From Vicinamibacteraceae bacterium (GTDB lineage: Bacteria; Planctomycetota; Phycisphaerae; Phycisphaerales; UBA5793), in NCBI GenBank assembly GCA_011525805.1, contig WYBR01000013.1:128768-192767 (forward strand): a stretch of 64,000 bases of DNA, in the 5' to 3' direction. Of this stretch, positions 8,777-19,595 are shown piece after piece. Below the pieces are notes generated by a model, which made no database searches, was not told where the DNA came from, and saw only the letters and a list, made by a program, of their open reading frames with translations. The position numbers were made by a program, and so were the translations under genes. How positions within the stretch are numbered: position 1 is the stretch's first letter; the number at the start of each line of letters is the position of its first letter.

Positions 8777-9322
8777 TCACGGCCGGGCGGAGAGTTCGTG
8801 CGTGCGGCCGTCTTCGTGGCGGATCGTCACGCAGAGGCGGCGGGCGTCGATCTCGAGGACGCTCCAGCCCTTTCCGAGCGCCTCGCCGACCCGGCGGACT
8901 TCCCCATCGATGACGGCGATCGGCGGGCGGGCGTTCATCACGCCGCTGAGCACAAACGACGGAATCGGCGGCGGAGGCGGCGCGGCGGCTCGAGGCGATT
9001 CCGCGGACGACGCGTGCGCCTCGGCCGGCGGCTGATAGAACGGACTGGGCAGGGGCGAGGCGGCGCGGCGCACTTCGTCGGCGCGCTCCCACGCGGCCTG
9101 CGCGCCGCGCGGCAGGGTGAGAAGCGGTTCGAGGACCACGGGAGGCGCTGGGCGCGAATCCTCCGCCACGCTCGCCTCGGCGTCTTGCGCCTCTTCGACC
9201 ACGGCGGCGGCGGATGCAAGCGGCCCGGCGCCGAGCGCCTTCACAAGAGCGACGATCGCCAGCGGCAGTCCCAGCGAAGCCGCGGCGGCCAGCCGCCGCG
9301 CGTTGGTCAGCGTCCATCTCAT
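8777..9322 (-). CDS. GspC/PilP-like periplasmic linker protein
   Basis: 181 aa; the ATG at 9322 follows GGAGGTGGATCC and overlaps the stop of the preceding gene (ATGA), so the two are translationally coupled. A short basic N-terminus leads into one membrane anchor (about residues 12-32), then an Ala/Pro/Glu-rich periplasmic linker, then a compact C-terminal domain from about residue 120 (FVLSGVMNARPPIAVIDGE, then WSVLEIDARRLCVTI). That domain has the spacing of the GspC homology region / PilP, which in known systems contacts the secretin. It is the last gene of the pseudopilin operon. No secretin follows: the next gene, gnd, is on the other strand. The assignment rests on topology and position more than on sequence identity. 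Confidence 0.6.
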   Translation of the reverse strand: MRWTLTNARRLAAAASLGLPLAIVALVKALGAGPLASAAAVVEEAQDAEASVAEDSRPAPPVVLEPLLTLPRGAQAAWERADEVRRAASPLPSPFYQPPAEAHASSAESPRAAAPPPPPIPSFVLSGVMNARPPIAVIDGEVRRVGEALGKGWSVLEIDARRLCVTIRHEDGRTHELSARP

Positions 9323-9918
9323 GGATCCACCTCCGGCACAATGTGTGCGGCCGCATCCGCGAGGCGGGCGGGGATCAGCACGCGGACGAACTCGACGTCG
9401 AGATGCAGCGCCAGGTCGCCGGGGCGCTTGCCCGCTGGGGCCGGGCCCAGGCGCATCGACGCCAGCCGCGTCAGCCCGGGAAGTTCGTGCAGCGAGTCGA
9501 GCAGCGCCGTCGTCTCGTCGAACGATCCGAGAGCGATGACGTTCCACCCGAAGACCTCGACGCGATCATCGACCGCCTCGGCGCGGCCGGGCGCGGCGGA
9601 CTCGATCTCCAGGCCGCTGCGGCGGATCAGTTCCGCGAGGACGTCGTAGGAGGCGTTGGGATCGGCGAGCGCCTCGTTGAGCGCTTGAAGTCGGCCCGTC
9701 AGTGGCGCGATCTCGTCGAGTTGGTGCGCTGCGACGAAGTTCGTGGTCGGCGCTGCGTCTTCCCGGTCGACCGCCTGCTCGGTGAGCTGTGCGCGCTCCG
9801 CCCGAATCCGCGCGAGGCGATCGATCCGCGGCGCTGTGAGGTGCGAAGCGAGCGCAACGAGCGCAGCAAGCACGACGGCGAGGGTGGGCAGGATTCGGCG
9901 AAGGAGACCGGCGTCCAT
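9319..9918 (-). CDS. GspM/PilO-like inner-membrane assembly protein
   Basis: 199 aa. The ATG at 9918 lies 7-8 bases after GGGGAGGAGA; a GTG at 9924 overlapping the upstream stop is an alternative. One N-terminal membrane segment (about residues 8-27) is followed by a coiled coil (IDRLARIRAERAQLTEQAV) and an alpha/beta domain with YDVLAELIRRSGLEIES and a later strand LALHLDVEF. This is the typical shape of PilO and GspM, which dimerise in the periplasm and link the cytoplasmic PilM/GspL platform to the outer ring. It sits between the GspL-like and GspC-like genes, the same order as in T2SS operons. It has little sequence signature of its own, so context carries the call. Confidence 0.65.
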   Translation of the reverse strand: MDAGLLRRILPTLAVVLAALVALASHLTAPRIDRLARIRAERAQLTEQAVDREDAAPTTNFVAAHQLDEIAPLTGRLQALNEALADPNASYDVLAELIRRSGLEIESAAPGRAEAVDDRVEVFGWNVIALGSFDETTALLDSLHELPGLTRLASMRLGPAPAGKRPGDLALHLDVEFVRVLIPARLADAAAHIVPEVDP

Positions 9919-9920
9919 TT

Positions 9921-11699
9921 TCACTTCTCCTCCCCGCCGGCGCTGACGAGGCTGCGGCCCGCGCCGCGTCCGGCGGCCAAGGGCGCGAGGCGCACCTGGA
10001 AGCGGCGCGCCCCGCGGCCGTCTATCTCGACGCGCGCGACCGAGCCGATCGCCGCCGTTTCGACCAGCGGGCTGCGCTGCAGGGCGTCGACGAAGTCGGC
10101 CACCAGCGTCTCGCTCCGCGGCCCGAGGGCGTAGCCTTCGAGTGCCAGTTCGGAAGTCGGCCCGTCGGCGCCGAGGGCGCGCTCCATCGTGCGGCCGTCG
10201 AAGTCCACGCGGATGAGTCGAACCTCCGGTCCGGCGAGCAGCGCGGCCTCGCGGAGCAGGGCGGCGAGGTCCGGCGTGCCCGTCGCGGCGACGACGGCGT
10301 TGCGCACGCGCCGGAACGCGGCGTCGCGGGCCCGCGCCTCGACCGCCTGCTCGGCCCGTCGCTGCGAATCATCGAGGCGGGCGGAGAGATCGTTGACCGC
10401 CTGGCGCTCGCTCGCGATCAGGCGATCCATGCGTTGCGCGTCGGCGGCGAGGAGCGCGGCGGCGACGGCCAGCCCCGCCCAGGCGGCGCGGTTGAAGCGC
10501 CGCACCGCGTGCCGCGCCACGGCGCGGGGCGGAAGGAGGTTCGGACAGCGCGGCAGCACGCGGAGGATCGAGTCGCCGCTGAGGCCGAAGTCGAAGTCAC
10601 TCTCCGCAGCGCGGACCGAGGCGCCCTGTTGGGTCTGCACGGGCGCTTCGACTGCATCGCCGATGATCGACGCCAGCCCGCGCACCGCCGCGCCCGGCCC
10701 GCAAAGCGAAAGGCGCAACTCGCGCCGCTGCGCCTCCGTGAGACCGAAGCGGAGCGACTGCTTGAGTTCCACGATGAGGCGCTGGAGCACGGGTTGAAGC
10801 AGGGGCAGGACGTGCTGGCCGAGCAGGCCGCAGGACGCGTCGAGCACCTGCTCGCGCTCGGGAATCCCGTGGGTTTCAAGAAGACGTGCGGCTCGTTCGC
10901 GCGTCAGGCTGAAATCGGCGCGCGATCCGCTCAGGCTGATGGGGCGGGTGAGCACGTCGACGAGTTGGCCCAGGCCCAGCCCGATCGGTCGGAAGAGCAG
11001 CAGCGAGCCGGCCCCGCTCACCACCAGCCAGGATTGACGAGGCCCGACGAAGAGGCGGCCGTGCGCGACATCGTTCGAGTCGTCGGCGTCGCGAAGGAGC
11101 GACGCGATGAGCACCGCCTCGACGGGAAGCACGCGCTCGAGCGTCAGCCCGGCGCGTTCGAAGAGTTCGTCGACGGCTTCGAGGGCGGCGCGGCGATCGG
11201 CGGCGGCGAGGAGATGCCGGCGCGGCGCCTCGCCCCGGAGATCGCGCGCGACTTCGCACGCATCGGCCAGGGCCGTCGCTTCCCCGGCGCCGAGGGAGCC
11301 GAGCGCGGCGAGCCGCGCCGCAGCGCACGCCTGATGGTCGGAGAGTCCGGGAAGGCTGGTGAGGCGCGTGGCGACAGTCGGATTGTCGTAAAGGACGACG
11401 GCCCGGCGTCCGGCCAGGCCGCGCTGGGCGACCCACGGCCGCAGTGTGTCAAAGAGGGCGCGCACCGCCGCGGGCCAGAGTGATCCACTCTCGGGCAGGT
11501 CAATCTGGAGTCGGGCGACCGTCGATCGCGCCGGCCCGCCGGTCGAGACCTCGACCTGCCCGGGGCTGATGACGAAGACCGCCGGTGAGCGTGCGAATGT
11601 GAACACCCCTTCTGCCCCCTCTTCGACAATCGCACTGCCATTGCCCGGGCGGAACGCCTCCCTTGTGCGAGATCGCGCTGGCGGGTCCGAGGCCGCCAC
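9921..11699 (-). CDS. GspL-like (PilM-PilN type) assembly platform protein
   Basis: 592 aa. The N-terminal ~380 residues have the layout of an actin-fold PilM/GspL cytoplasmic domain, with strands such as AVVLYDNPTVATRL and RLFVGPRQSWLVVSG, and a late glycine-rich LCGPGAAVRGLASII corresponding to the nucleotide-site region. A membrane segment (AAWAGLAVAAALLAA) lies near residue 400, then a coiled coil (ERQAVNDLSARLDDSQRRAE) and a ferredoxin-like PilN domain with LEGYALGPRSETLVADFVDAL. GspL of T2SS is exactly such a PilM+PilN fusion. In known machines it recruits the ATPase GspE to the membrane. It is followed within 3 bases by the GspM-like gene. The start at 11699 is uncertain because no clear ribosome site is seen. 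Confidence 0.72.
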   Translation of the reverse strand: MAASDPPARSRTREAFRPGNGSAIVEEGAEGVFTFARSPAVFVISPGQVEVSTGGPARSTVARLQIDLPESGSLWPAAVRALFDTLRPWVAQRGLAGRRAVVLYDNPTVATRLTSLPGLSDHQACAAARLAALGSLGAGEATALADACEVARDLRGEAPRRHLLAAADRRAALEAVDELFERAGLTLERVLPVEAVLIASLLRDADDSNDVAHGRLFVGPRQSWLVVSGAGSLLLFRPIGLGLGQLVDVLTRPISLSGSRADFSLTRERAARLLETHGIPEREQVLDASCGLLGQHVLPLLQPVLQRLIVELKQSLRFGLTEAQRRELRLSLCGPGAAVRGLASIIGDAVEAPVQTQQGASVRAAESDFDFGLSGDSILRVLPRCPNLLPPRAVARHAVRRFNRAAWAGLAVAAALLAADAQRMDRLIASERQAVNDLSARLDDSQRRAEQAVEARARDAAFRRVRNAVVAATGTPDLAALLREAALLAGPEVRLIRVDFDGRTMERALGADGPTSELALEGYALGPRSETLVADFVDALQRSPLVETAAIGSVARVEIDGRGARRFQVRLAPLAAGRGAGRSLVSAGGEEK

Positions 11700-11927: not shown

Positions 11928-13421
11928 CTACCGCTCGATCTCACGCCAGCGAACGAGTTGAAGCGTGCGCCGGGCGTCGGAGTCCGGGTCTCGCTCGACG
12001 GCGCCGAGGTCGGTCAGCGCCCGGCCATCGCCGTCTCCGTCGATCGGACGAACTCGGCCCAGAAGATCGTCGCCGACGGCGGCGCGTCCGCGGCCCGCAT
12101 CAATCGCCGGCGAGCCAGCGGCCGGGGCGAAGTTCCCGGAGGCCGGATCGATCCACTGCGGTTCGGCGCTCTCAATGAGGCCCTCGATCACGGCATGACC
12201 GCGGCCGCGCACAAGCACGCGCACATCGCAGGCGAGCAGGCCGGAGATCGTCAGGCGATCGGTCCGCCCCTCGGCCGCGAGCGCCACGTGGCAGTGAGCG
12301 ATGACGTTGTCGGCCGCGAGCACGCGGCCCTCTTTCGCTTCGACGTCGATCCCAACGCGGCAGCCGGCGATGGAGTTGTGCGCCACGACCGCGGCGGCCT
12401 CTGCGTCGTCGATGCGAACGCGGACGCCGACCGTGCAATCGCTGATGACGTTGTTGGCGATGTGAAGGATGGCGTCGCGCCCTTCGGCGCGGACGTCGAT
12501 GCCGAAGAGTTCGTCGCTGCCGCGCCTCCGCCCCGCGGCGCCGGGGTCGTGCATGGAACCGGCGAGGTAGAGCGGGCCCGCGAGCGCGAGGCGATTGGCT
12601 TCGACCTCCGCGCGAACGCCCGGTCGGGTCGGGTGGTCGCCGCGTCGGCCCCTGCGGGCTGGTCCCTCGCGCGCGTCGTCCTCGTCCGCGCCATCACCGT
12701 AGTCGTGGTCGTGGACGTCGTGGCGCGCTTCATCCTCATCGTCGTCGTGACCACCGTCGTCTTCACCTGCCCGGTCGCGACCGCCGCGGTCGTCGCGCGG
12801 CGGTTCGTCACTCTCTTCGAGTTGCAGGCTGATGCAGGTTCCGCCCTCCAGATCGCGGATGAAGGCGTTGTGCGCGATGCGGACGCCGGCCGTTTCGCGC
12901 ACTTCCACTCCCACCTTGAAGGGCACATGAATGAAGCAGGACTCGATCGTCAGCCCGTCGGCGCGGCGGGCTTCGATGGCGGCGCGCGTCTGCCCGTGAA
13001 GCGTGAGACCCTCGATGCGCCAGTGACGCCGGTCCTGGAGGCGCACTCCCCGCTCGCGCACGCCGTCGCCCTCGATGACGACGGGGCCGGGGAGATCGCC
13101 GGTTCGTGCGCCGCCGGGATCGGCGAGGAGGCGATTGGGGTCGTCGGCCGTGCCGCTGCCCGCCGGCTCGCCACCGCCCGAGCCGATCGAGATCGACTCG
13201 TAGTAGACGCCGGGGCCGACAATGATCGTGTTGCCTGATCCGGTTGCGAGCGCCACGGCGCGCTGGATCGAGCGCAATGCGGAAGCGGAGCTGAATCCGT
13301 CGTTGGCGTCGCTTCCCTCGGCGCGGACGTAGAGCGTCAGGCCGTCGGCCAGCGCCGCGGGCGCAAAGGTGAGTGCCATCAGGGCGCCGGCGGCCGTCAG
13401 AATGCGATTGAACCAATTCAT
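11928..13421 (-). CDS. Exported right-handed beta-helix protein with His/Asp-rich insert
   Basis: 497 aa with a signal peptide ending LADG near residue 27. Next comes a segment typical of pectate-lyase-fold proteins: LYVRAEGSDANDGFSSASAL, SIQRAVALATGSGNTIIVGPGVYYESISI. Parallel-beta-helix rungs follow (WRIEGLTLHGQTRAAIEARR; LTIESCFIHVPFKVGVEVRE; VRIAHNAFIRD; HIANNVISDCTVGVRV; AVVAHNSIAGCRVGIDV). Between rungs, about residues 205-265, sits a hydrophilic insert of Asp, Glu, His, Arg and Gly (DDGGHDDDEDEARHDVHDHD), possibly metal-binding. The tail DLGAVERD is common in this class. It lies between the pseudopilin genes and the GspL-like gene, so it may be a substrate or an accessory surface component of that machine (inference). 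Polysaccharide binding or lyase activity is possible; no catalytic triad can be assigned. Confidence 0.78.
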   Translation of the reverse strand: MNWFNRILTAAGALMALTFAPAALADGLTLYVRAEGSDANDGFSSASALRSIQRAVALATGSGNTIIVGPGVYYESISIGSGGGEPAGSGTADDPNRLLADPGGARTGDLPGPVVIEGDGVRERGVRLQDRRHWRIEGLTLHGQTRAAIEARRADGLTIESCFIHVPFKVGVEVRETAGVRIAHNAFIRDLEGGTCISLQLEESDEPPRDDRGGRDRAGEDDGGHDDDEDEARHDVHDHDYGDGADEDDAREGPARRGRRGDHPTRPGVRAEVEANRLALAGPLYLAGSMHDPGAAGRRRGSDELFGIDVRAEGRDAILHIANNVISDCTVGVRVRIDDAEAAAVVAHNSIAGCRVGIDVEAKEGRVLAADNVIAHCHVALAAEGRTDRLTISGLLACDVRVLVRGRGHAVIEGLIESAEPQWIDPASGNFAPAAGSPAIDAGRGRAAVGDDLLGRVRPIDGDGDGRALTDLGAVERDPDSDARRTLQLVRWREIER

Positions 13422-13487: not shown

Positions 13488-13922
13488 CTACTGCACGATC
13501 ATCTGGACGATTCGCTCCGCGCGGCCGCAGCGGCCGGCGCTGGTGATGGTGATGAGCCCGCCTTCGTGCGAGACGGTCACGCGCAGACGGGCCGCGCCCA
13601 GCGCGGGATCGTTGGAATCGTTGCCCTCATCGGAGATCGAGCCGATTCCGCCGTCGCCGTCCTCGTCGGCGTTGAGCATCAGTTCGCGCAAGGCGAGGGC
13701 CATGCCCGATTCCGCCGCGTAGTTGGCGCGGATCGTCTCGAAGCGATCGACGGCCACGCCCTGCTCGCTGACGCCGCTCATGAGCAGCGAGGCGACGGCG
13801 ATCTCGAGGATGAGCAGCAGAACGATCACGACCGCGAGGACGCTTCCCGTGCGGCGGTGGCGCGGCGACGCCGCGGCGGCGAGGCGAACCTCTTCGGCGC
13901 TTCGGTCGGTGCGGACATTCAC
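13488..13922 (-). CDS. GspK/PilX-like minor pseudopilin-type protein
   Basis: 144 aa from a GTG at 13922 that overlaps the upstream stop (GTGA) and follows GGAGGCGC. A basic leader (SPRHRRTGSVLAVVIVLLLI) runs into one hydrophobic helix (about residues 27-50), then FETIRANYAAESGMALALREL, the helix that commonly follows the membrane segment in GspK/PilX-like proteins. An acidic Asp/Gly loop (DEDGDGGIGSISDEGNDSND) and a short beta-rich domain end the protein. It lacks the FTLIE-type prepilin motif and is much shorter than classical GspK. Position after GspG/H/I/J-like genes supports the K slot. In known systems the K subunit caps the pseudopilus tip. Confidence 0.62.
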   Translation of the reverse strand: MNVRTDRSAEEVRLAAAASPRHRRTGSVLAVVIVLLLILEIAVASLLMSGVSEQGVAVDRFETIRANYAAESGMALALRELMLNADEDGDGGIGSISDEGNDSNDPALGAARLRVTVSHEGGLITITSAGRCGRAERIVQMIVQ

Positions 13923-14482
13923 GGCGCGCCTCCCATCATCGCGCAGCGAAGGAAGATCCGCGTTTGCAGCGACTCGGTCAGCCCCTGCCTGGTCAGGGCG
14001 AGGCGCAGGGCGAGGCGGCGGATCCGCGGCCGGTCCGCCGGCGCGACTGAGGCGCCGACGAGCAGCGGCCGGTTCGACTCGTCGAAGTAGGCGATGCTGA
14101 ATTCCGAGACGCCGTTGCACAGGAGTCGCTCGGCCGCGCCATCGGCCGCAAGCAGAAGGTCCGACCCATCGAGCCGCAACCGCGAATCGTCGCCCCACGC
14201 AAGCACCGAGGCGGAGGCCTCGGTGATGTGCGGGGCCGGCGCGCCCGCGGCCGGATCGGCGTCGATCTCCCGCAGTTCGCGCACAAGGCGATCGAGCGTC
14301 ACGCTCGCTTCGCCGTGCAGTTGCATCCGCACGCTCGAATCGACGAATGCGGCGGTGGCGCTGAGGATGAGCGACGACGTGACGCCCCCGAGCACGCCGA
14401 GGAGCACGATGACGGCGATCACCTCGACGAGGGTGAATCCGCCGCGCGGCGAGTGGCGGCGAGGCGCAAGGCACTCAATCAT
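13919..14482 (-). CDS. GspJ-like pseudopilin
   Basis: 187 aa. I use the ATG at 14482, which overlaps the stop of the previous gene (ATGA); a GTG 9 bases upstream is an alternative. The leader ends in RGG, directly followed by FTLVEVIAVIVLLGVLGG, a prepilin-peptidase site with Gly at -1, Phe at +1 and Glu at +5. The remainder is a soluble domain with HGEASVTLDRLVRELREID, typical of the J minor pseudopilin, and a single late Cys pair (CN; RCAMM). It would be processed by a prepilin peptidase not present in this window and packed into a pseudopilus tip complex with the I- and K-like products. Confidence 0.75.
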   Translation of the reverse strand: MIECLAPRRHSPRGGFTLVEVIAVIVLLGVLGGVTSSLILSATAAFVDSSVRMQLHGEASVTLDRLVRELREIDADPAAGAPAPHITEASASVLAWGDDSRLRLDGSDLLLAADGAAERLLCNGVSEFSIAYFDESNRPLLVGASVAPADRPRIRRLALRLALTRQGLTESLQTRIFLRCAMMGGAP

Positions 14483-14913
14483 GGCCCCCACTCCGTCAGG
14501 ACGGCGGCGACTTCGAGCGTCCGCGGGCGCCCGCGCGAGTCGGTCCAGGTCACGGCGACGGTGACGGTCTTACAGCCCGCGCCGGCGGTGCGCAGGTCCG
14601 GCCCCGATTCGACGATGCGCACGGAGCGGCTGAACGCGGAGTGATCCCGGACGGGCGACTCGTCGGGATAGTTGGCCGCCGCGACGAAGTCGTAGCCGCG
14701 GGTGGCGCTGCGCCAGTCGGCGAGGATGTCCTCGAGGCGCTCGGCCGCCAGCCAGCGCGCCTGCGAGAAGCGCACGGGATCGATGCGGTCGATCGTCGCC
14801 TGTCGCAGGGCGAGGAGCATCGGCGGGATGGCCACGGCGAGGATCACCATCGCCGCGATCATTTCGATGAGCGTGAAGCCGTTCTGCCGAGGGTGTCGGG
14901 GTAGCGATCTCAT
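14479..14913 (-). CDS. GspI-like pseudopilin
   Basis: 144 aa with leader MRSLPRHPRQNG and a cleavage site before FTLIEMIAAMVILAVAIPPM, matching prepilin N-methylation signals (Gly at -1, Glu at +5). After the hydrophobic helix comes RWLAAERLEDILADWRS, the amphipathic continuation, and a small beta domain ending TVAVTWTDSRGRPRTLEVAA. Length and position between the H-like and J-like genes fit GspI. It is coupled to the next gene by a 4-base overlap. The upstream gap is 39 bases. Confidence 0.75.
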   Translation of the reverse strand: MRSLPRHPRQNGFTLIEMIAAMVILAVAIPPMLLALRQATIDRIDPVRFSQARWLAAERLEDILADWRSATRGYDFVAAANYPDESPVRDHSAFSRSVRIVESGPDLRTAGAGCKTVTVAVTWTDSRGRPRTLEVAAVLTEWGP

Positions 14914-14952: not shown

Positions 14953-15498
14953 CTACTGCAGCCGGTGAACGAAGCCCGTTCTCGCGGTGATGCGGATGAC
15001 GTGGCCGCCCGAGAGGCTGATGGTGGCGTCCTCTTCGAGCACGGTCTCTCCGCCGGCGAGGGGCCGGCCGCGGCTGTCGAAGCCGATCTCGGCGCTTCCC
15101 TCGACGTCCACGCCTTCGAGGGCAACGCCGCGCCACTCGCCGCGATCGTATTGAACGACGAACGGCTTTCCGGTGGAGTCGTCGATCATGGGCTGGCGGC
15201 CGGCGCGGCCGGCGGGGTCGGCCTGCTCGATGAAGAGGGCGTAGCGCTGGGCCTGCGCGTCGAAGACCACCCACGTGCGCAGGCCGCGGGCCACGGAGCG
15301 CTGGCGGGCGAGTTGGAGGTCGCGCACGAGGCGCGAGGCGGCGGCGGACTGGCGCGTCGCGCCCAGATTCGTCAGCGCCGGAACGACGACTGCGCTGATA
15401 GCCGCGAGGATCAGGAGAACGGCCAGCAGTTCAGTCAGCGTAAAGCCGCCGCTCCGCGCGCCGGATCGGCGGCCGAGGATCGCCTCAGTGCGACACAT
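14953..15498 (-). CDS. GspH/FimT-like pseudopilin
   Basis: 181 aa. Start at ATG 15498, six bases after the stop of the GspG gene; a GTG one codon upstream is possible. The leader ends in SGG before FTLTELLAVLLILAAISA, a standard prepilin site. The next part, TRQSAAASRLVRDLQLARQRSVAR, is the hallmark of the GspH/FimT family (a helix with repeated Ala and Arg and an LQLARQ-like core). The C-terminal domain is beta-rich with IGFDSRGRPLAGG, the F-D/N-xxGRP-like loop of this family. It would be a minor subunit of the pseudopilus. Confidence 0.8.
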   Translation of the reverse strand: MCRTEAILGRRSGARSGGFTLTELLAVLLILAAISAVVVPALTNLGATRQSAAASRLVRDLQLARQRSVARGLRTWVVFDAQAQRYALFIEQADPAGRAGRQPMIDDSTGKPFVVQYDRGEWRGVALEGVDVEGSAEIGFDSRGRPLAGGETVLEEDATISLSGGHVIRITARTGFVHRLQ

Positions 15499-15503
15499 CA
15501 CGA

Positions 15504-15932
15504 TTACCAGGTGTTCTCGCCAACCGTGCCGGTGTTGGCCCAGAACTTACCAGTCGCTTCGTCGTAACACCACCCGCGGTTCCCGGAAACGGGCGGATTC
15601 GCGGAATCCCACGTCGCGGCGAGGATCCGGTTGTCGCCGTTGTAGGGATTCTCGGGAATCGCCTCCTGCATGACCGTCCCCACGGTGCGAAGCTGGGCGA
15701 TGGTGGGATAGACGGGCGTTCCGTTGACGGCGGAGTTGCTGTAGAAGTTGGCGATGGCGCTGCGGACGCCGCCGAGCGCGCCGCGGCAAGCGGACTCCTT
15801 GGCCTTGGCGGAGTAGTCAAAGAACCGCGGCAGGGCCACGCCGGAGAGAATGGCGAGGACGACGATCACGGCGATGAGTTCGATGAGGGTGAAGGCGCCG
15901 CGGCGTGCGGCGAGCGAGCGGGTTGAAGACAT
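15504..15932 (-). CDS. gspG: Major pseudopilin, GspG type
   Basis: 142 aa from ATG 15932, which follows AAGGAAGG at 8-nt spacing; the frame extends about 100 codons upstream over the end of gspF, but without a signal. The leader MSSTRSLAARRGA precedes FTLIELIAVIVVLAILSG. The residue before the cleavage point is Ala rather than Gly, a tolerated but less common choice. After the helix come YSAKAKESACRGALGGVRSAIANFY, PENPYNGDNRI and GWCYDEATGKFWAN, the calcium-loop and C-terminal pattern of planctomycete type II secretion pilins. Two Cys are present. It would form the pseudopilus shaft. The adjacent gspF and gspE supply the platform and motor. Confidence 0.85.
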   Translation of the reverse strand: MSSTRSLAARRGAFTLIELIAVIVVLAILSGVALPRFFDYSAKAKESACRGALGGVRSAIANFYSNSAVNGTPVYPTIAQLRTVGTVMQEAIPENPYNGDNRILAATWDSANPPVSGNRGWCYDEATGKFWANTGTVGENTW

Positions 15933-16017: not shown

Positions 16018-17220
16018 TCAGCCCGCCACGGCCATTGAGTTCCACATCGGCAGAAAGATGGCCAGCGCCAGGCCAAGCACGACGCCCGCGAGGGACACGA
16101 CGACGACCGGCTCGATGAGCGTGGAGATGTTGCGGGTGACGTGGGCGAGTTCGCGGTCATAGTGCCGAGCGATGATGCGGCACATCTCGGGCAGTTCGGC
16201 GGACTGCTCTCCGGCGGAGATGAGCCGCCGCGCAAAGCCGGTGATGTAGGGACAGTCGCCGAGCACCTCCGCCAACCTTCCTCCCTGCGAAACCTGGGCC
16301 GCGAGCCGTCGGGCGTCGTCGAGCATCAGGGGCCGCCCCGCGGCTCGCCCGCCCATCTCCAGGCCGTCCATCATCGACAGGCCGCTGGAGAGCGACAGGC
16401 CGAAGACGTGCGCAAACCGCGCGAGCGCCGCCGCCTGCAGGGCCCGGCGGATGACGGGCAGGCGGTGCAGCCATCGGTCCAGCACGCGGCCGCCATGAGC
16501 GGTCCGCGCCGCGCGCCGCCACAGGAAGAGACTGAGCGCGATGCCACCGGCAATGATCCACCAGTATGACGTAACGCCCTGGCTGATTCCCATAACCACG
16601 CGCGTCGGCAGCGGCAGGTCCAGGCCGCGCGACTCGAACATCGTCACGAAGCGAGGCACGACCGCCACCATGAGAAATGCCACCGCGGCGACCAGCGCCG
16701 CCAGCACGCACACGGGGTACATCAGGGCCGAGCGCAGCCCCGCCCGCGTCTCCATCTCGCGATCGAGCATCTCCGCGAGGTGGGAGAGGATGCGCACGAG
16801 GTTGCCGCTCTTCTCCGCCGCGTGAATCGTCTCGACGTAGACGTCCCCGAAGACGGGGCGGTACGCACCCATCGCGGCGGTGATGGTGCTGCCGGCGGAG
16901 ATGCTCGCGGCGATGTCCTCGATCATCTCGGCCATTGGTCCGGAGGGCTCTTCGCGCGCGATCGACCGGAGCCCTTCGGCGATGGGAATGCGCGCCTCGA
17001 CGAGCACGGAAAGTTGGTAAGTGAACTGGCTGACGTCGCGCAGGGAGAGTCGGCGAGCGGCGAGGCGCCGGCTCCGGCGGGCCTCGCGCACCGCGATGGG
17101 CGTGAGGCCGGATGAGGAGACGCGGCGGTAGGCTTCGTCCCACGTGCGGGCCTCGGTCACCCCCCGGCGTGTGCGGCCGGCGGCGTCCACCGCCTGAAAC
17201 TCGTAGGTCAGGGCCGTCAC
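16018..17220 (-). CDS. gspF: Type II secretion / type IV pilus inner-membrane platform protein GspF
   Basis: 400 aa, the normal length. Starts with GTG overlapping the gspE stop (GTGA), so translation is coupled. The N-terminal ~60 residues (TYEFQAVDAAGRTRRGVTEA) are the usual small cap. Two homologous T2SSF domains follow: the first from about residue 65 (FTYQLSVLVEARIPIAEGL, then HAAEKSGNLVRILSHLAEML), the second from about 265 (FAHVFGLSLSSGLSMMDGLE, then ISAGEQSAELPEM). Three membrane helices lie near 165-190, 210-232 and 370-393. GspF is the polytopic protein turned or gripped by GspE during pilus assembly. Confidence 0.93.
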   Translation of the reverse strand: MTALTYEFQAVDAAGRTRRGVTEARTWDEAYRRVSSSGLTPIAVREARRSRRLAARRLSLRDVSQFTYQLSVLVEARIPIAEGLRSIAREEPSGPMAEMIEDIAASISAGSTITAAMGAYRPVFGDVYVETIHAAEKSGNLVRILSHLAEMLDREMETRAGLRSALMYPVCVLAALVAAVAFLMVAVVPRFVTMFESRGLDLPLPTRVVMGISQGVTSYWWIIAGGIALSLFLWRRAARTAHGGRVLDRWLHRLPVIRRALQAAALARFAHVFGLSLSSGLSMMDGLEMGGRAAGRPLMLDDARRLAAQVSQGGRLAEVLGDCPYITGFARRLISAGEQSAELPEMCRIIARHYDRELAHVTRNISTLIEPVVVVSLAGVVLGLALAIFLPMWNSMAVAG

Positions 17221-18941
17221 GCCGACCTCCTCGCCGCGGCGGAGGCGACCTGCTCGGTCTCATCGAGCATGACGACGCGGGCGACTTCCTCGAGCGTTGT
17301 CAGGCCGAGCCTCGCCTTGTCCAGGCCGTCGCGCCACATGAGCCTCATGCCCTCGTTCACGGCGGTGAGGCGCACCGCGCCGGTCGTGGCGCCGGCGGCG
17401 ACGGCTTCCTGGACCGCGGGGGTGAATCGGAGCAGTTCGTAGATGCCGATCCGTCCCTGGTAGCCGCTCTGGAGGCAGCGGGCGCAGCCGCGGCCGCGGC
17501 GCCAGCCCTCGGCCGTCTCGACTCCGAAGCGCGCCAGCAGCAGGGCGCCGGGGCGATCCTCTTCCGCGCAGTACTCGCAGATGCGGCGCACCAGGCGCTG
17601 GGCGAGCACGCCCGAGAGGGCCGAGTTGATGACAAAGGAGGGCAGGCCGAAGTCGATGAGCCGGGCGATGGCGCCGGCCGCGTCGCTCGTGTGCAGGGTC
17701 GAGAGCACGAGGTGGCCGGTGAGCGAGGCCTGCAGGGCGATCGCCGCCGTCTCTTCGTCGCGTATCTCCCCCACCAGCACGACGTCGGGGTCCTGCCTCA
17801 GGACGGAGCGCAGGGCCGAGGCGAACGTCAGCCCGATCTCGGGATTCACCTGCACCTGCCGCACGAGTGGCAGCCGGATCTCGACGGGATCCTCGATGGT
17901 GATGATGTTGAGGCTGGGCGTGTTGATGCCGGAGATGGCGGTGTAGAGCGTCGTCGTCTTGCCGCAGCCGGTCGGGCCGGTCACGAGCATCATGCCGTTG
18001 GGCTGGGAGAGGATCTGCTCGAGGCGCTCGGCGGTCTGCGCATCGACGCCCAGATCGGCGAAGGTCTGGACGCTCCGGCCGACGCTCAGCAGTCGGACGA
18101 CGGCGTTCTCGCCGGCGACGGTGGGGAGAATGCTCAGGCGGACGTCGACGCTGCGCGCGGCCGGCGCGGGCGTGCTGATCTCTGGTCGAAAGGCGGCGTC
18201 GGGAAGGGTGAAGCGGAACTTGCCGTCCTGCGGGCGGCGGGTCTGCGTCAGGTCGAGGCCCGCCATGACCTTCAGGCGGCCGAGGATCTTGGCGTGCATG
18301 CTCAGCGGCGGCCCTTGCCGCTTGTGCAGCACGCCGTCGATCCGGTAGCGGATGTGCATCTCGCCGTGGTCGGGGTTGATGTGGATGTCGGAGGCGCCGT
18401 TGCGGATCGCATCGGCGAGAAGGGCGTTGACGGCGGCGACGATCGGGCCAGTCTCCTCGTCGACGCGGACCATCTCGGCGGGCCCGTGGCCTTCCACCTC
18501 TTCGGCGGTCAGTGCGTAGGCGCGATCGATCAGTTCGCGCAGCGCCTTGGGCTCACAGAGCACCGGGTCCACCTCCGTGCGGACGATCTGCCGGACCTGA
18601 TCGAGCGCTTCGAGGTTGAGGGGATCCTCGATGCCCAGCGTCATGACGCCATCGAGCACGAAGAGCGGAAAGCACAGATGCTGGCGCGCCAGCGAGCGGG
18701 GGATGAGTCGGCAGTTGGCCAGATTGATCTCGAAGCAGCGCAGATCGACGTAGTTCGCCTCGCAGACCTGCGCCTTGGTGAGGGCGATGCGGTCGGCGGG
18801 CAGCAGGCCAAGCGTCTCGATCGCCTCGTCGAGCGTGCATCCGACGTCGTCGGCGAGGGAGTCGGCCTGCTCGAGTTGGACGCCGGTGATCAGGCCTTCT
18901 TCGAGCAGCGCCTTGCCGAGGAACTCAGCGGTCTCAAGCAC
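17217..18941 (-). CDS. gspE: Type II secretion / type IV pilus assembly ATPase GspE (PilB)
   Basis: 574 aa from GTG 18941, chosen because GGGAGG lies just upstream; an ATG at 18968 would add nine residues. The N-terminal MshEN-like domain is followed by the N2 domain with GASDIHINP and RYRIDGVLH, then the ATPase domain: Walker A GPTGCGKTTT at about 322-331, Asp box ITIEDPVE, Walker B DVVLVGEIRD and His box LVLSTLHTSDA. The zinc motif is CEYC (about 455-458) and CARC (about 486-489). It is the hexameric motor that drives pseudopilus polymerisation. Its start overlaps the end of a PilZ-type gene by eight bases, so c-di-GMP control of the motor is plausible. It could equally be called PilB. Confidence 0.95.
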   Translation of the reverse strand: MLETAEFLGKALLEEGLITGVQLEQADSLADDVGCTLDEAIETLGLLPADRIALTKAQVCEANYVDLRCFEINLANCRLIPRSLARQHLCFPLFVLDGVMTLGIEDPLNLEALDQVRQIVRTEVDPVLCEPKALRELIDRAYALTAEEVEGHGPAEMVRVDEETGPIVAAVNALLADAIRNGASDIHINPDHGEMHIRYRIDGVLHKRQGPPLSMHAKILGRLKVMAGLDLTQTRRPQDGKFRFTLPDAAFRPEISTPAPAARSVDVRLSILPTVAGENAVVRLLSVGRSVQTFADLGVDAQTAERLEQILSQPNGMMLVTGPTGCGKTTTLYTAISGINTPSLNIITIEDPVEIRLPLVRQVQVNPEIGLTFASALRSVLRQDPDVVLVGEIRDEETAAIALQASLTGHLVLSTLHTSDAAGAIARLIDFGLPSFVINSALSGVLAQRLVRRICEYCAEEDRPGALLLARFGVETAEGWRRGRGCARCLQSGYQGRIGIYELLRFTPAVQEAVAAGATTGAVRLTAVNEGMRLMWRDGLDKARLGLTTLEEVARVVMLDETEQVASAAARRSA

Positions 18942-19425
18942 GAGGGGCCTCCCCCCGCTCGGCCGCATCGCGCGCCGCCATCACGTGGCGCATCGAGGAC
19001 GCGATGCACTCGAGCATCTCGCTCAACGCCGACTCGAGACGCTCGTCCGCGTTCTCAAAACTCGATCCGATGAAGAACGAGGGCACGCGGCTGGTCAGTT
19101 CACAGCGGCGGAGGCGCACGGCGTGCTGGAAGGCAACGCAGCGGGGCGTCTGGGGATCGCCCGCCGCGCCGCCGTGCGCCCCGGGCGCGAAGATGCGGAT
19201 CTCGCCGCAGAGCATCCGCGGCAGCCCGACGGGCGAGCAGAACCCGATGCCGCCGGCGCCGATGTCGGAGATGGTGATGCGGATCGTGCGCGGCCCGCTC
19301 GCCGCGGCCGTCGCAGGTGAAAACGCCACCTGGTCGGCGTGGGCCGAGGCGACTTCGAACTCGCCGTCGAGCACGACGTCGCTGCGCTCAAACTGCCGGA
19401 TGGTCAGGTCCGCGCCGCGGTTCAT
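18934..19425 (-). CDS. PilZ domain protein (probable c-di-GMP receptor)
   Basis: 163 aa from ATG 19425 after GAGGGGGCG. Near the N-terminus IRQFERSDVV supplies the RxxxR motif, and about 40 residues on ITISDIGAGGIGF supplies the (D/N)xSxxG-like motif with Gly in place of Ser. These are the two c-di-GMP contacts of PilZ domains. The rest is a beta-barrel-like segment and a C-terminal helix (ADERLESALSEMLECIASSM). The stop overlaps the gspE start, making it the first gene of the secretion operon. PilZ proteins next to PilB/GspE ATPases are known to regulate pilus assembly, so the same is inferred here. The Ser-to-Gly change could weaken ligand binding. Confidence 0.75.
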   Translation of the reverse strand: MNRGADLTIRQFERSDVVLDGEFEVASAHADQVAFSPATAAASGPRTIRITISDIGAGGIGFCSPVGLPRMLCGEIRIFAPGAHGGAAGDPQTPRCVAFQHAVRLRRCELTSRVPSFFIGSSFENADERLESALSEMLECIASSMRHVMAARDAAERGEAPRA

Positions 19426-19595
19426 CGCCCCCTCGCTCTCCGGGCGGCGCGCGGCTTGGGCGCACTCCACCCGCGGCGGGTATCGGCCATCGCTGGCGGC
19501 GGGTTCATCGGCGCGGTCGAGAAGCTCGGCCGCGGGATGGCGCGGCGCGGCCTCGAGGCGGCGTGGATCGGTTATCGGCGCCTGGCGACGATCGA

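What the first reader, a model, noticed from the sequence alone, without database searches (positions are those of the whole stretch)
11928..13421. Beta-helix protein inserted among machine genes, with a His/Asp-rich insert
The gene separates the pseudopilin genes from the GspL/M/C-like genes. The product is exported and has a ~60-residue acidic, His-rich insert (DDGGHDDDEDEARHDVHDHD) between helix rungs, plausible for metal binding. Its fixed place would suggest a substrate or tip-associated component.
Basis: partly seen in the sequence, partly recalled or inferred. Interest (0 to 1): 0.55.

Follow-up and report, generated by a model that had tools for sequence, protein, structure and literature searches.

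The report
Pseudopilus tip cargo with C-terminal tag
This gene makes an exported beta-helix protein that probably rides on the tip of a secretion or pilus-like machine, held there by a short C-terminal peptide that unrelated proteins of the same machine share; if true, it is a new kind of address label for such machines.

Summary
A minus-strand gene (13421..11928, 497 aa) encodes an exported right-handed beta-helix between a short GspK/PilX-like pseudopilin and a PilM/PilN-type GspL. The order is kept in 5 of 5 operon-bearing genomes seen from its family. Across the order the slot varies: of 110 complete operons read, 24 carry cargo (14 separate genes, 10 fused to the pseudopilin); most others are empty. 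Cargo folds differ (beta-helix, FG-GAP, NHL, propeller-like, PA14+DUF7305). One cargo domain occurs fused to the pseudopilin in one genome and as a separate exported protein in others (54% identity).

Separate cargos end in a shared peptide, roughly R-[IV]-[IV]-x-W-x-E-[IV]-x-P: 18 of 18 separate slot cargos, 22 of 23 unlinked beta-helix homologues, 20 of 1801 background genes (16 of them one flanking orthologue). All 22 genomes with an unlinked tagged homologue have the machine; the untagged one lacks it. AlphaFold2 leaves the tag a free tail.

Best reading: cargo docked by this tag on the tip-capping pseudopilin (docking is inferred). The acidic insert is a disordered, genus-specific loop; metal binding is unsupported.

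The parts
11928..13421 (-). target gene: exported right-handed beta-helix, 497 aa
13347..13421 (-). Sec-type signal peptide, residues 1-25 (by eye)
   Evidence: sequence
12618..12809 (-). charged insert, residues 205-268; disordered in the model; genus-specific
11991..12134 (-). choice-of-anchor Q domain, residues 430-477 (25.3 bits, cut-off 25)
11931..11963 (-). C-terminal tag, residues 487-497; W492 and E494 at least 90% conserved in 23 homologues; pLDDT ~33
13488..13922 (-). short GspK/PilX-like pseudopilin (tip-capping type, no Glu5); proposed docking partner
13919..14491 (-). GspJ-like pseudopilin
14479..14913 (-). GspI-like pseudopilin
14953..15501 (-). GspH-like pseudopilin
15504..15932 (-). 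GspG-like major pseudopilin
16018..17220 (-). GspF/PilC platform protein (label by position and orthology search)
17217..18968 (-). GspE/PilB assembly ATPase
18934..19572 (-). small conserved ORF before the ATPase (my label 'PilZ-like' is recalled; no Pfam hit)
9921..11699 (-). GspL-like protein with PilM-like and PilN-like parts (both below family cut-offs)
9319..9924 (-). GspM/PilO-like protein (position, orthology)
8777..9322 (-). GspC/PilP-like protein (position, orthology)

Best explanation
The protein is the cargo, or tip effector, of a type-4-filament machine of the T2SS/T4P kind. Sec exports it to the periplasm. Its C-terminal tail, a free peptide with the alternating pattern of a beta-strand and a conserved W-x-E, then docks on the neighbouring GspK/PilX-like pseudopilin, the only one that lacks Glu5 and therefore probably the tip-capping subunit. 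Growth of the pseudopilus would then push the cargo through a secretin encoded elsewhere. The beta-helix would act outside as an exchangeable recognition module, probably for polysaccharide. Shown by computation: gene order, fold, slot variability, fused and separate forms of one cargo domain, the shared tag and its co-occurrence with the machine, the missing Glu5. Inferred: docking on GspK rather than on another part, passage through a secretin, display versus release, the ligand.
For: (1) Same slot in 5 of 5 operon-bearing genomes of the family; the genus-mate without a GspL match (G002) also lacks the gene. (2) Of 110 complete operons, 24 carry cargo between GspJ and GspL: 14 as separate genes, 10 as extensions of the GspK-like pseudopilin (domains). 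(3) One cargo domain is fused to GspK in G008 and is a separate signal-peptide protein in the slot of G296 (BLAST E 2.7e-168, 54% identity), G205 (5e-50) and G287 (1.9e-40). (4) A GspK-cargo pair occurs twice in tandem in G174. (5) Tag W-x-E in 18 of 18 separate slot cargos (20 of 20 with two that were found by the tag itself) and in 22 of 23 unlinked beta-helix homologues; background 20 of 1801 genes, 16 of them one flanking orthologue. (6) With the last 25 residues cut off, tagged proteins fall into BLAST clusters without a link. (7) All 22 genomes with unlinked tagged homologues have the machine, against 151 of 400 in the sample; G052 has neither tag nor machine. (8) Tag pLDDT ~33 although W492/E494 are among the most conserved columns. 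(9) Glu5 in 0 of 93 GspK-like proteins scored, in 74 of 86 GspH, 59 of 76 GspI, 67 of 77 GspJ by a crude rule. (10) Precedents, passages read: TcpF/CofJ bind the tip minor pilin by a short terminal peptide with a key aromatic residue (PMC9565799); PilY1 is predicted to join PilX by beta-strand complementation (PMC13190605).
Against: No binding, localisation or secretion data. Fused forms, which need no docking, still keep a tryptophan near the end in 10 of 11 (W-x-E in 2 of 11 by the strict rule), so the tag may serve something other than holding on to GspK. In the 22 genomes with unlinked tagged homologues the operon slot is empty (20 by the automatic rule, 2 with only an alternative-frame ORF). 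In G287 the slot gene is on the opposite strand. One fused form (L043) has no W and a G330 slot homologue has W-x-Q. Rows share ancestry, so counts are not independent events. The operon has no secretin; five lie elsewhere in the genome and none is tied to it.
Confidence: 0.6

Rival explanations
1. Freely released T2SS substrate: the tag is a linear secretion signal read by the machine (GspK tip, secretin or GspC), and the cargo is released, not displayed.
For: The tag tracks the machine even when unlinked; the gene content of the operon resembles T2SS.
Against: Fusions to the pseudopilin, 10 of 24 cargo-bearing operons, cannot be released without a cut.
Confidence: 0.2
2. The tag is a surface-retention or processing signal for another sorting system, and the operon only happens to carry such genes.
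For: A tryptophan is kept even in fused forms, after a Gly/Ser linker; other short C-terminal sorting signals are known (PMC3237569, PMC11980579, seen in the listings).
Against: No membrane segment or basic tail. Pattern scans of 12 and 7 genomes found mainly slot-type proteins and their neighbours, not dozens of unrelated proteins.
Confidence: 0.1
3. A polysaccharide lyase or glycosidase exported by the machine; the tag is an incidental conserved end.
For: Closest solved folds are Pel9A, PL6, GH136.
Against: No Lys or His is at least 90% conserved over the 23 homologues; conserved columns are mostly Gly, Asn, Asp, Pro and the tag. The tag occurs on unrelated folds.
Confidence: 0.07
4. Metal-binding or metal-sensing protein acting through the Asp/His insert.
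For: Composition: 18 D and 5 H in 64 residues; a D-rich stretch sits N-terminally in G005.
Against: Insert absent outside the genus, disordered; NosD below cut-off.
Confidence: 0.03

Closest known systems
TcpF/CofJ, secreted clients of type IVb pili with a T4bP secretion signal (PMC9565799, passages read)
   Same: Operon-encoded, Sec-exported non-pilin; short flexible terminal peptide with a key aromatic residue; tip minor pilin as partner (shown there, inferred here).
   Different: Signal is N-terminal there, C-terminal here. No obvious similarity between the TcpF and CofJ signals; here one motif over at least five cargo types. The machine here is T2SS/T4aP-like.
PilC/PilY1 tip adhesins (PMC13190605 and PMC10191384, passages read)
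   Same: Large exported non-pilin, gene next to PilX; exchangeable outer modules; proposed strand complementation with PilX.
   Different: No PilY1 family match; a conserved ~11-residue tail in place of a conserved C-terminal domain.
Modular pilins, e.g. S. sanguinis PilB, and ComZ of Thermus (PMC8179133, PMC6561018, passages read)
   Same: Relatives here have PA14+DUF7305 or a propeller-like module grafted on the GspK-like pseudopilin; ComZ carries a beta-solenoid at the tip.
   Different: The target is a separate non-pilin protein; split and fused forms of one module coexist in one slot.
Right-handed beta-helix polysaccharide enzymes (Pel9A, PL6, GH136)
   Same: Fold.
   Different: No Lys/His conserved at 90%; 10-13% identity for the best matches; extra tag.

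Membership tests
T4bP-type secreted client (TcpF/CofJ) | Sec-exported, encoded in the pilus operon | tested here: met
   (signal peptide by eye)
T4bP-type secreted client (TcpF/CofJ) | N-terminal aromatic signal peptide after the Sec site | tested here: not met
   the conserved aromatic tail is C-terminal
T4bP-type secreted client (TcpF/CofJ) | binds the tip minor pilin | not testable with these tools
   no complex prediction or binding assay
PilC/PilY1 | PilY1 C-terminal beta-propeller family | tested here: not met
   only Beta_helix, NosD, DUF1565 in Pfam
PilC/PilY1 | gene next to a PilX-like minor pilin | tested here: met
Modular pilin | N-terminal class III (prepilin) signal | tested here: not met
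   Sec-type N-terminus; no N_methyl match; met by the fused relatives
Type II secretion system (the machine) | ATPase, platform, G-H-I-J-K pseudopilins and L in one operon | tested here: met
   several labels rest on order and orthology
Type II secretion system (the machine) | secretin of the system | tested here: inconclusive
   five secretins in the genome, none on this contig
PL6/PL9 polysaccharide lyase | right-handed beta-helix | tested here: met
PL6/PL9 polysaccharide lyase | conserved catalytic Lys/Arg on the helix | tested here: inconclusive
   no Lys/His at least 90% conserved; residues not mapped on a lyase structure
NosD copper protein | family score | tested here: not met
   21.9 vs 23.6 bits (Pfam); 22.2 vs 300 (NCBIfam)
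CTERM-type sorting signal (PEP-, GlyGly-, MYXO-CTERM) | motif, membrane helix, basic tail at the C-terminus | tested here: not met
   no hydrophobic helix in the last 30 residues of the cargos listed (by eye)

The most novel reading that the evidence does not exclude
The C-terminal peptide R-[IV]-[IV]-x-W-x-E-[IV]-x-P is a portable address label for a T2SS-like pseudopilus: any exported domain that carries it is picked up at the tip subunit, whether encoded in the operon, elsewhere, or fused to the pseudopilin. It would be a linear recognition signal, shared over unrelated folds, in a class of machine whose rule of substrate choice is an open question.
Probability: 0.4. Interest if true: 0.88.

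Novelty: new variant of a known kind. Interest (0 to 1): 0.7.

Why it matters
How T2SS-type machines choose cargo is unresolved; the prevailing view is that the determinants are structural (start of the abstract of PMC7949064 in the listing). Here an ~11-residue tail is shared by beta-helix, FG-GAP, NHL, propeller-like and PA14 proteins and follows the machine through the order, so a linear docking rule can be tested with a peptide and one pseudopilin. Natural split and fused versions of one cargo give ready-made controls.

Tried and rejected
Tried without result: a search for relatives in named genomes with the target protein (none); promoter and terminator patterns around the gene (no promoter-like site, one terminator-like site inside gspL, fewer than in the shuffles); tandem repeats in the gene (none); Pfam for three cargos (L057, L080, L089 456 aa: none); NCBIfam for a known tag model (none). 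A pattern scan of the own genome for the tag gave 7 matches against 7 in the reversed control; only the target and one FG-GAP-like protein had it at the end of a long ORF.

Rejected: metal binding as the point of the insert; a genome-wide sorting signal; NosD, PilY1 and modular-pilin membership.

Rows dropped before counts: of 37 operons flagged as filled I kept 24. Left out were 5 with only an alternative-frame ORF (L101, L129, L150, L151, L161), 4 with a 61-89-residue tail on GspK (L092, L109, L146, L153) and 4 with a 1.2-1.8 kb gap but no convincing cargo ORF (L061, L069, L124, L160). This sorting was by eye. 19 loci without a usable GspJ were not counted. The slot of L056 holds four further ORFs without the tag. 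L060 and L065 were noticed through the tag and are left out of '18 of 18'; the eight PA14-type neighbours in the unlinked list were likewise picked partly by the tag and are left out of '22 of 23'. Among the 22, G027 (L044) has about 40 residues after the tag. L088 is counted as fused although in that assembly the pilin part and the rest lie in different frames.

Full report
What is there. The gene runs on the minus strand from 13421 to 11928. It follows, with a 66-base gap, a short GspK/PilX-like pseudopilin (13922-13488) and precedes a GspL-like gene with PilM- and PilN-like parts (11699-9921; both below family cut-offs). The full row is ATPase, platform, G, H, I, J, K, target, L, M, C. No secretin lies on this contig; the genome has five elsewhere.

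The protein. Pfam Beta_helix 34.3 bits (cut-off 25.9), choice-of-anchor Q 25.3 (cut-off 25). AlphaFold2 with 23 sequences gives mean pLDDT 80.3, a core above 90, the insert 222-264 mostly below 50 and the last 21 residues near 33. Foldseek's best solved relatives are GH136, Pel9A and PL6 enzymes at 10-13% identity. No Lys or His is at least 90% conserved; W492 and E494 are.

The insert. In four genus members it is 51-73 residues, rich in D, E, R and H but hardly alignable; G005 and the homologues of other genera in alignment A1 lack it, and G005 has a D/K-rich stretch at its N-terminus instead. I read it as a disordered charged loop.

Gene order. In a search of 61 genomes (own and relatives) the gene is found in 4 of 5 genomes of the genus and in the one other genome of the family, each time in the same slot; the genus-mate without it, G002, also has no GspL match. 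In 400 genomes of the order GspL matches in 151 at E <= 1e-10 (some of these are weak, probably paralogous matches) and the beta-helix in 33 at E <= 1e-20. I read 110 complete GspJ-to-GspL stretches, not counting the window. 73 are empty by the automatic rule; of the 37 flagged I judge 24 to carry cargo (see Tried and rejected): 14 as separate genes, 10 fused to the pseudopilin.

Fused and separate. Nine of the ten fused proteins have PA14+DUF7305 behind the pilin part; the best solved match of a model of one of them is a PA14 carbohydrate-binding domain of an adhesin. The tenth, of G008, has a propeller-like repeat domain (my label). That domain is the same as the separate slot proteins of G296 (E 2.7e-168, 54% identical), G205 and G287. 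In G332 and G185 an extended pseudopilin without the tag is followed by a separate tagged beta-helix. In G174 the pseudopilin-cargo pair occurs twice in tandem. This is the usual fusion argument for partnership.

The tag. Separate slot cargos end alike: VRWREIER (target), IIRWTEVDPND, LVSWTEIEP, IVSWQEVEP, IRWLEKDPNQ and others. The strict rule is met by 20 of 20 separate cargos (18 of 18 without two found by the rule), 2 of 11 fused ones (10 of 11 keep a W near the end; most have a Gly/Ser-rich linker before it), 0 of 5 extended pseudopilins whose cargo is separate, and 20 of 1801 background genes, 16 of which are one flanking orthologue. Of 23 unlinked beta-helix homologues 22 have it; all 22 genomes have the machine. 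The exception, G052, has no GspL match. In g63, g121 and g139 genomes a tagged PA14-repeat protein lies beside the tagged beta-helix. Once the tails are removed the tagged proteins split into clusters without BLAST links, so the tail is not carried along by one shared domain.

Not genome-wide. In 12 genomes W-x-E-[IV]-x-P-stop hit 22 places; of the 7 in long ORFs, 4 are slot-type cargos, 2 one cytochrome-like family, 1 a dockerin-like protein (labels by eye). In 7 genomes a broader pattern gave 18 places, 8 at the end of long ORFs: 5 beta-helices, 3 PA14 neighbours; it missed the known tags of G005 and G342. The scans would miss other variants.

Mechanism. By a crude rule Glu5 is found in 0 of 93 GspK-like proteins that could be scored and in most GspH, I and J; a review passage says the tip complex is capped by a subunit lacking Glu5 (PMC10191384). 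So the slot lies behind the tip-capping subunit. The tail has the pattern of a beta-strand, and PilX-PilY1 strand complementation is predicted in T4aP (PMC13190605); TcpF and CofJ show that a short aromatic peptide can hook an exported protein on a tip minor pilin (PMC9565799). In the model of a fused protein the tag is drawn as a strand (590-597) but at pLDDT around 40 and with no partner reported, a weak hint. Docking on GspK is my inference.

Literature. Nine searches of the open-licence library listed no paper whose title or abstract start deals with this tag or slot; I read passages of six papers, none whole. Subscription papers and preprints are not held.

Limits. Counts are of related genomes, not independent events; slot calls were made by eye on simple ORFs; the f8 operons found could not be read.

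Noticed in passing
window 13488-13922 and relatives (alignments A3, A4): The GspK-like pseudopilin carries a DEDGDG loop of EF-hand type (motif recalled) in the f1 and G008 proteins and in several fused relatives, lost in the f2 ones with empty slots shown in A3.
   Followed up: no
L250:1907-3499 (G000:C21): An exported-looking FG-GAP-like protein of the same genome ends in FVDWVEIAVE; it may be a second, unlinked client.
   Followed up: no
L080:4935-6353 (G287): A tagged cargo gene sits in the slot on the opposite strand to the operon.
   Followed up: partly
L067:4736-5197 (G320): A short GspK-like pseudopilin itself ends in a tag-like SGWEEIP.
   Followed up: no
family f8 genomes: The GspL-like protein of this machine also occurs in a second family of the class (14 of the 48 matching genomes).
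   Followed up: no
All 61 genomes searched have platform-protein (GspF) matches, 2-9 per genome, so several type-4-filament systems coexist.
   Followed up: no
L056:6501-11235 (G276): Four further ORFs of 284-353 aa in the slot end in ISALFD, ISAVFD or ITAAFD and look like paralogues; they lack the tag.
   Followed up: no
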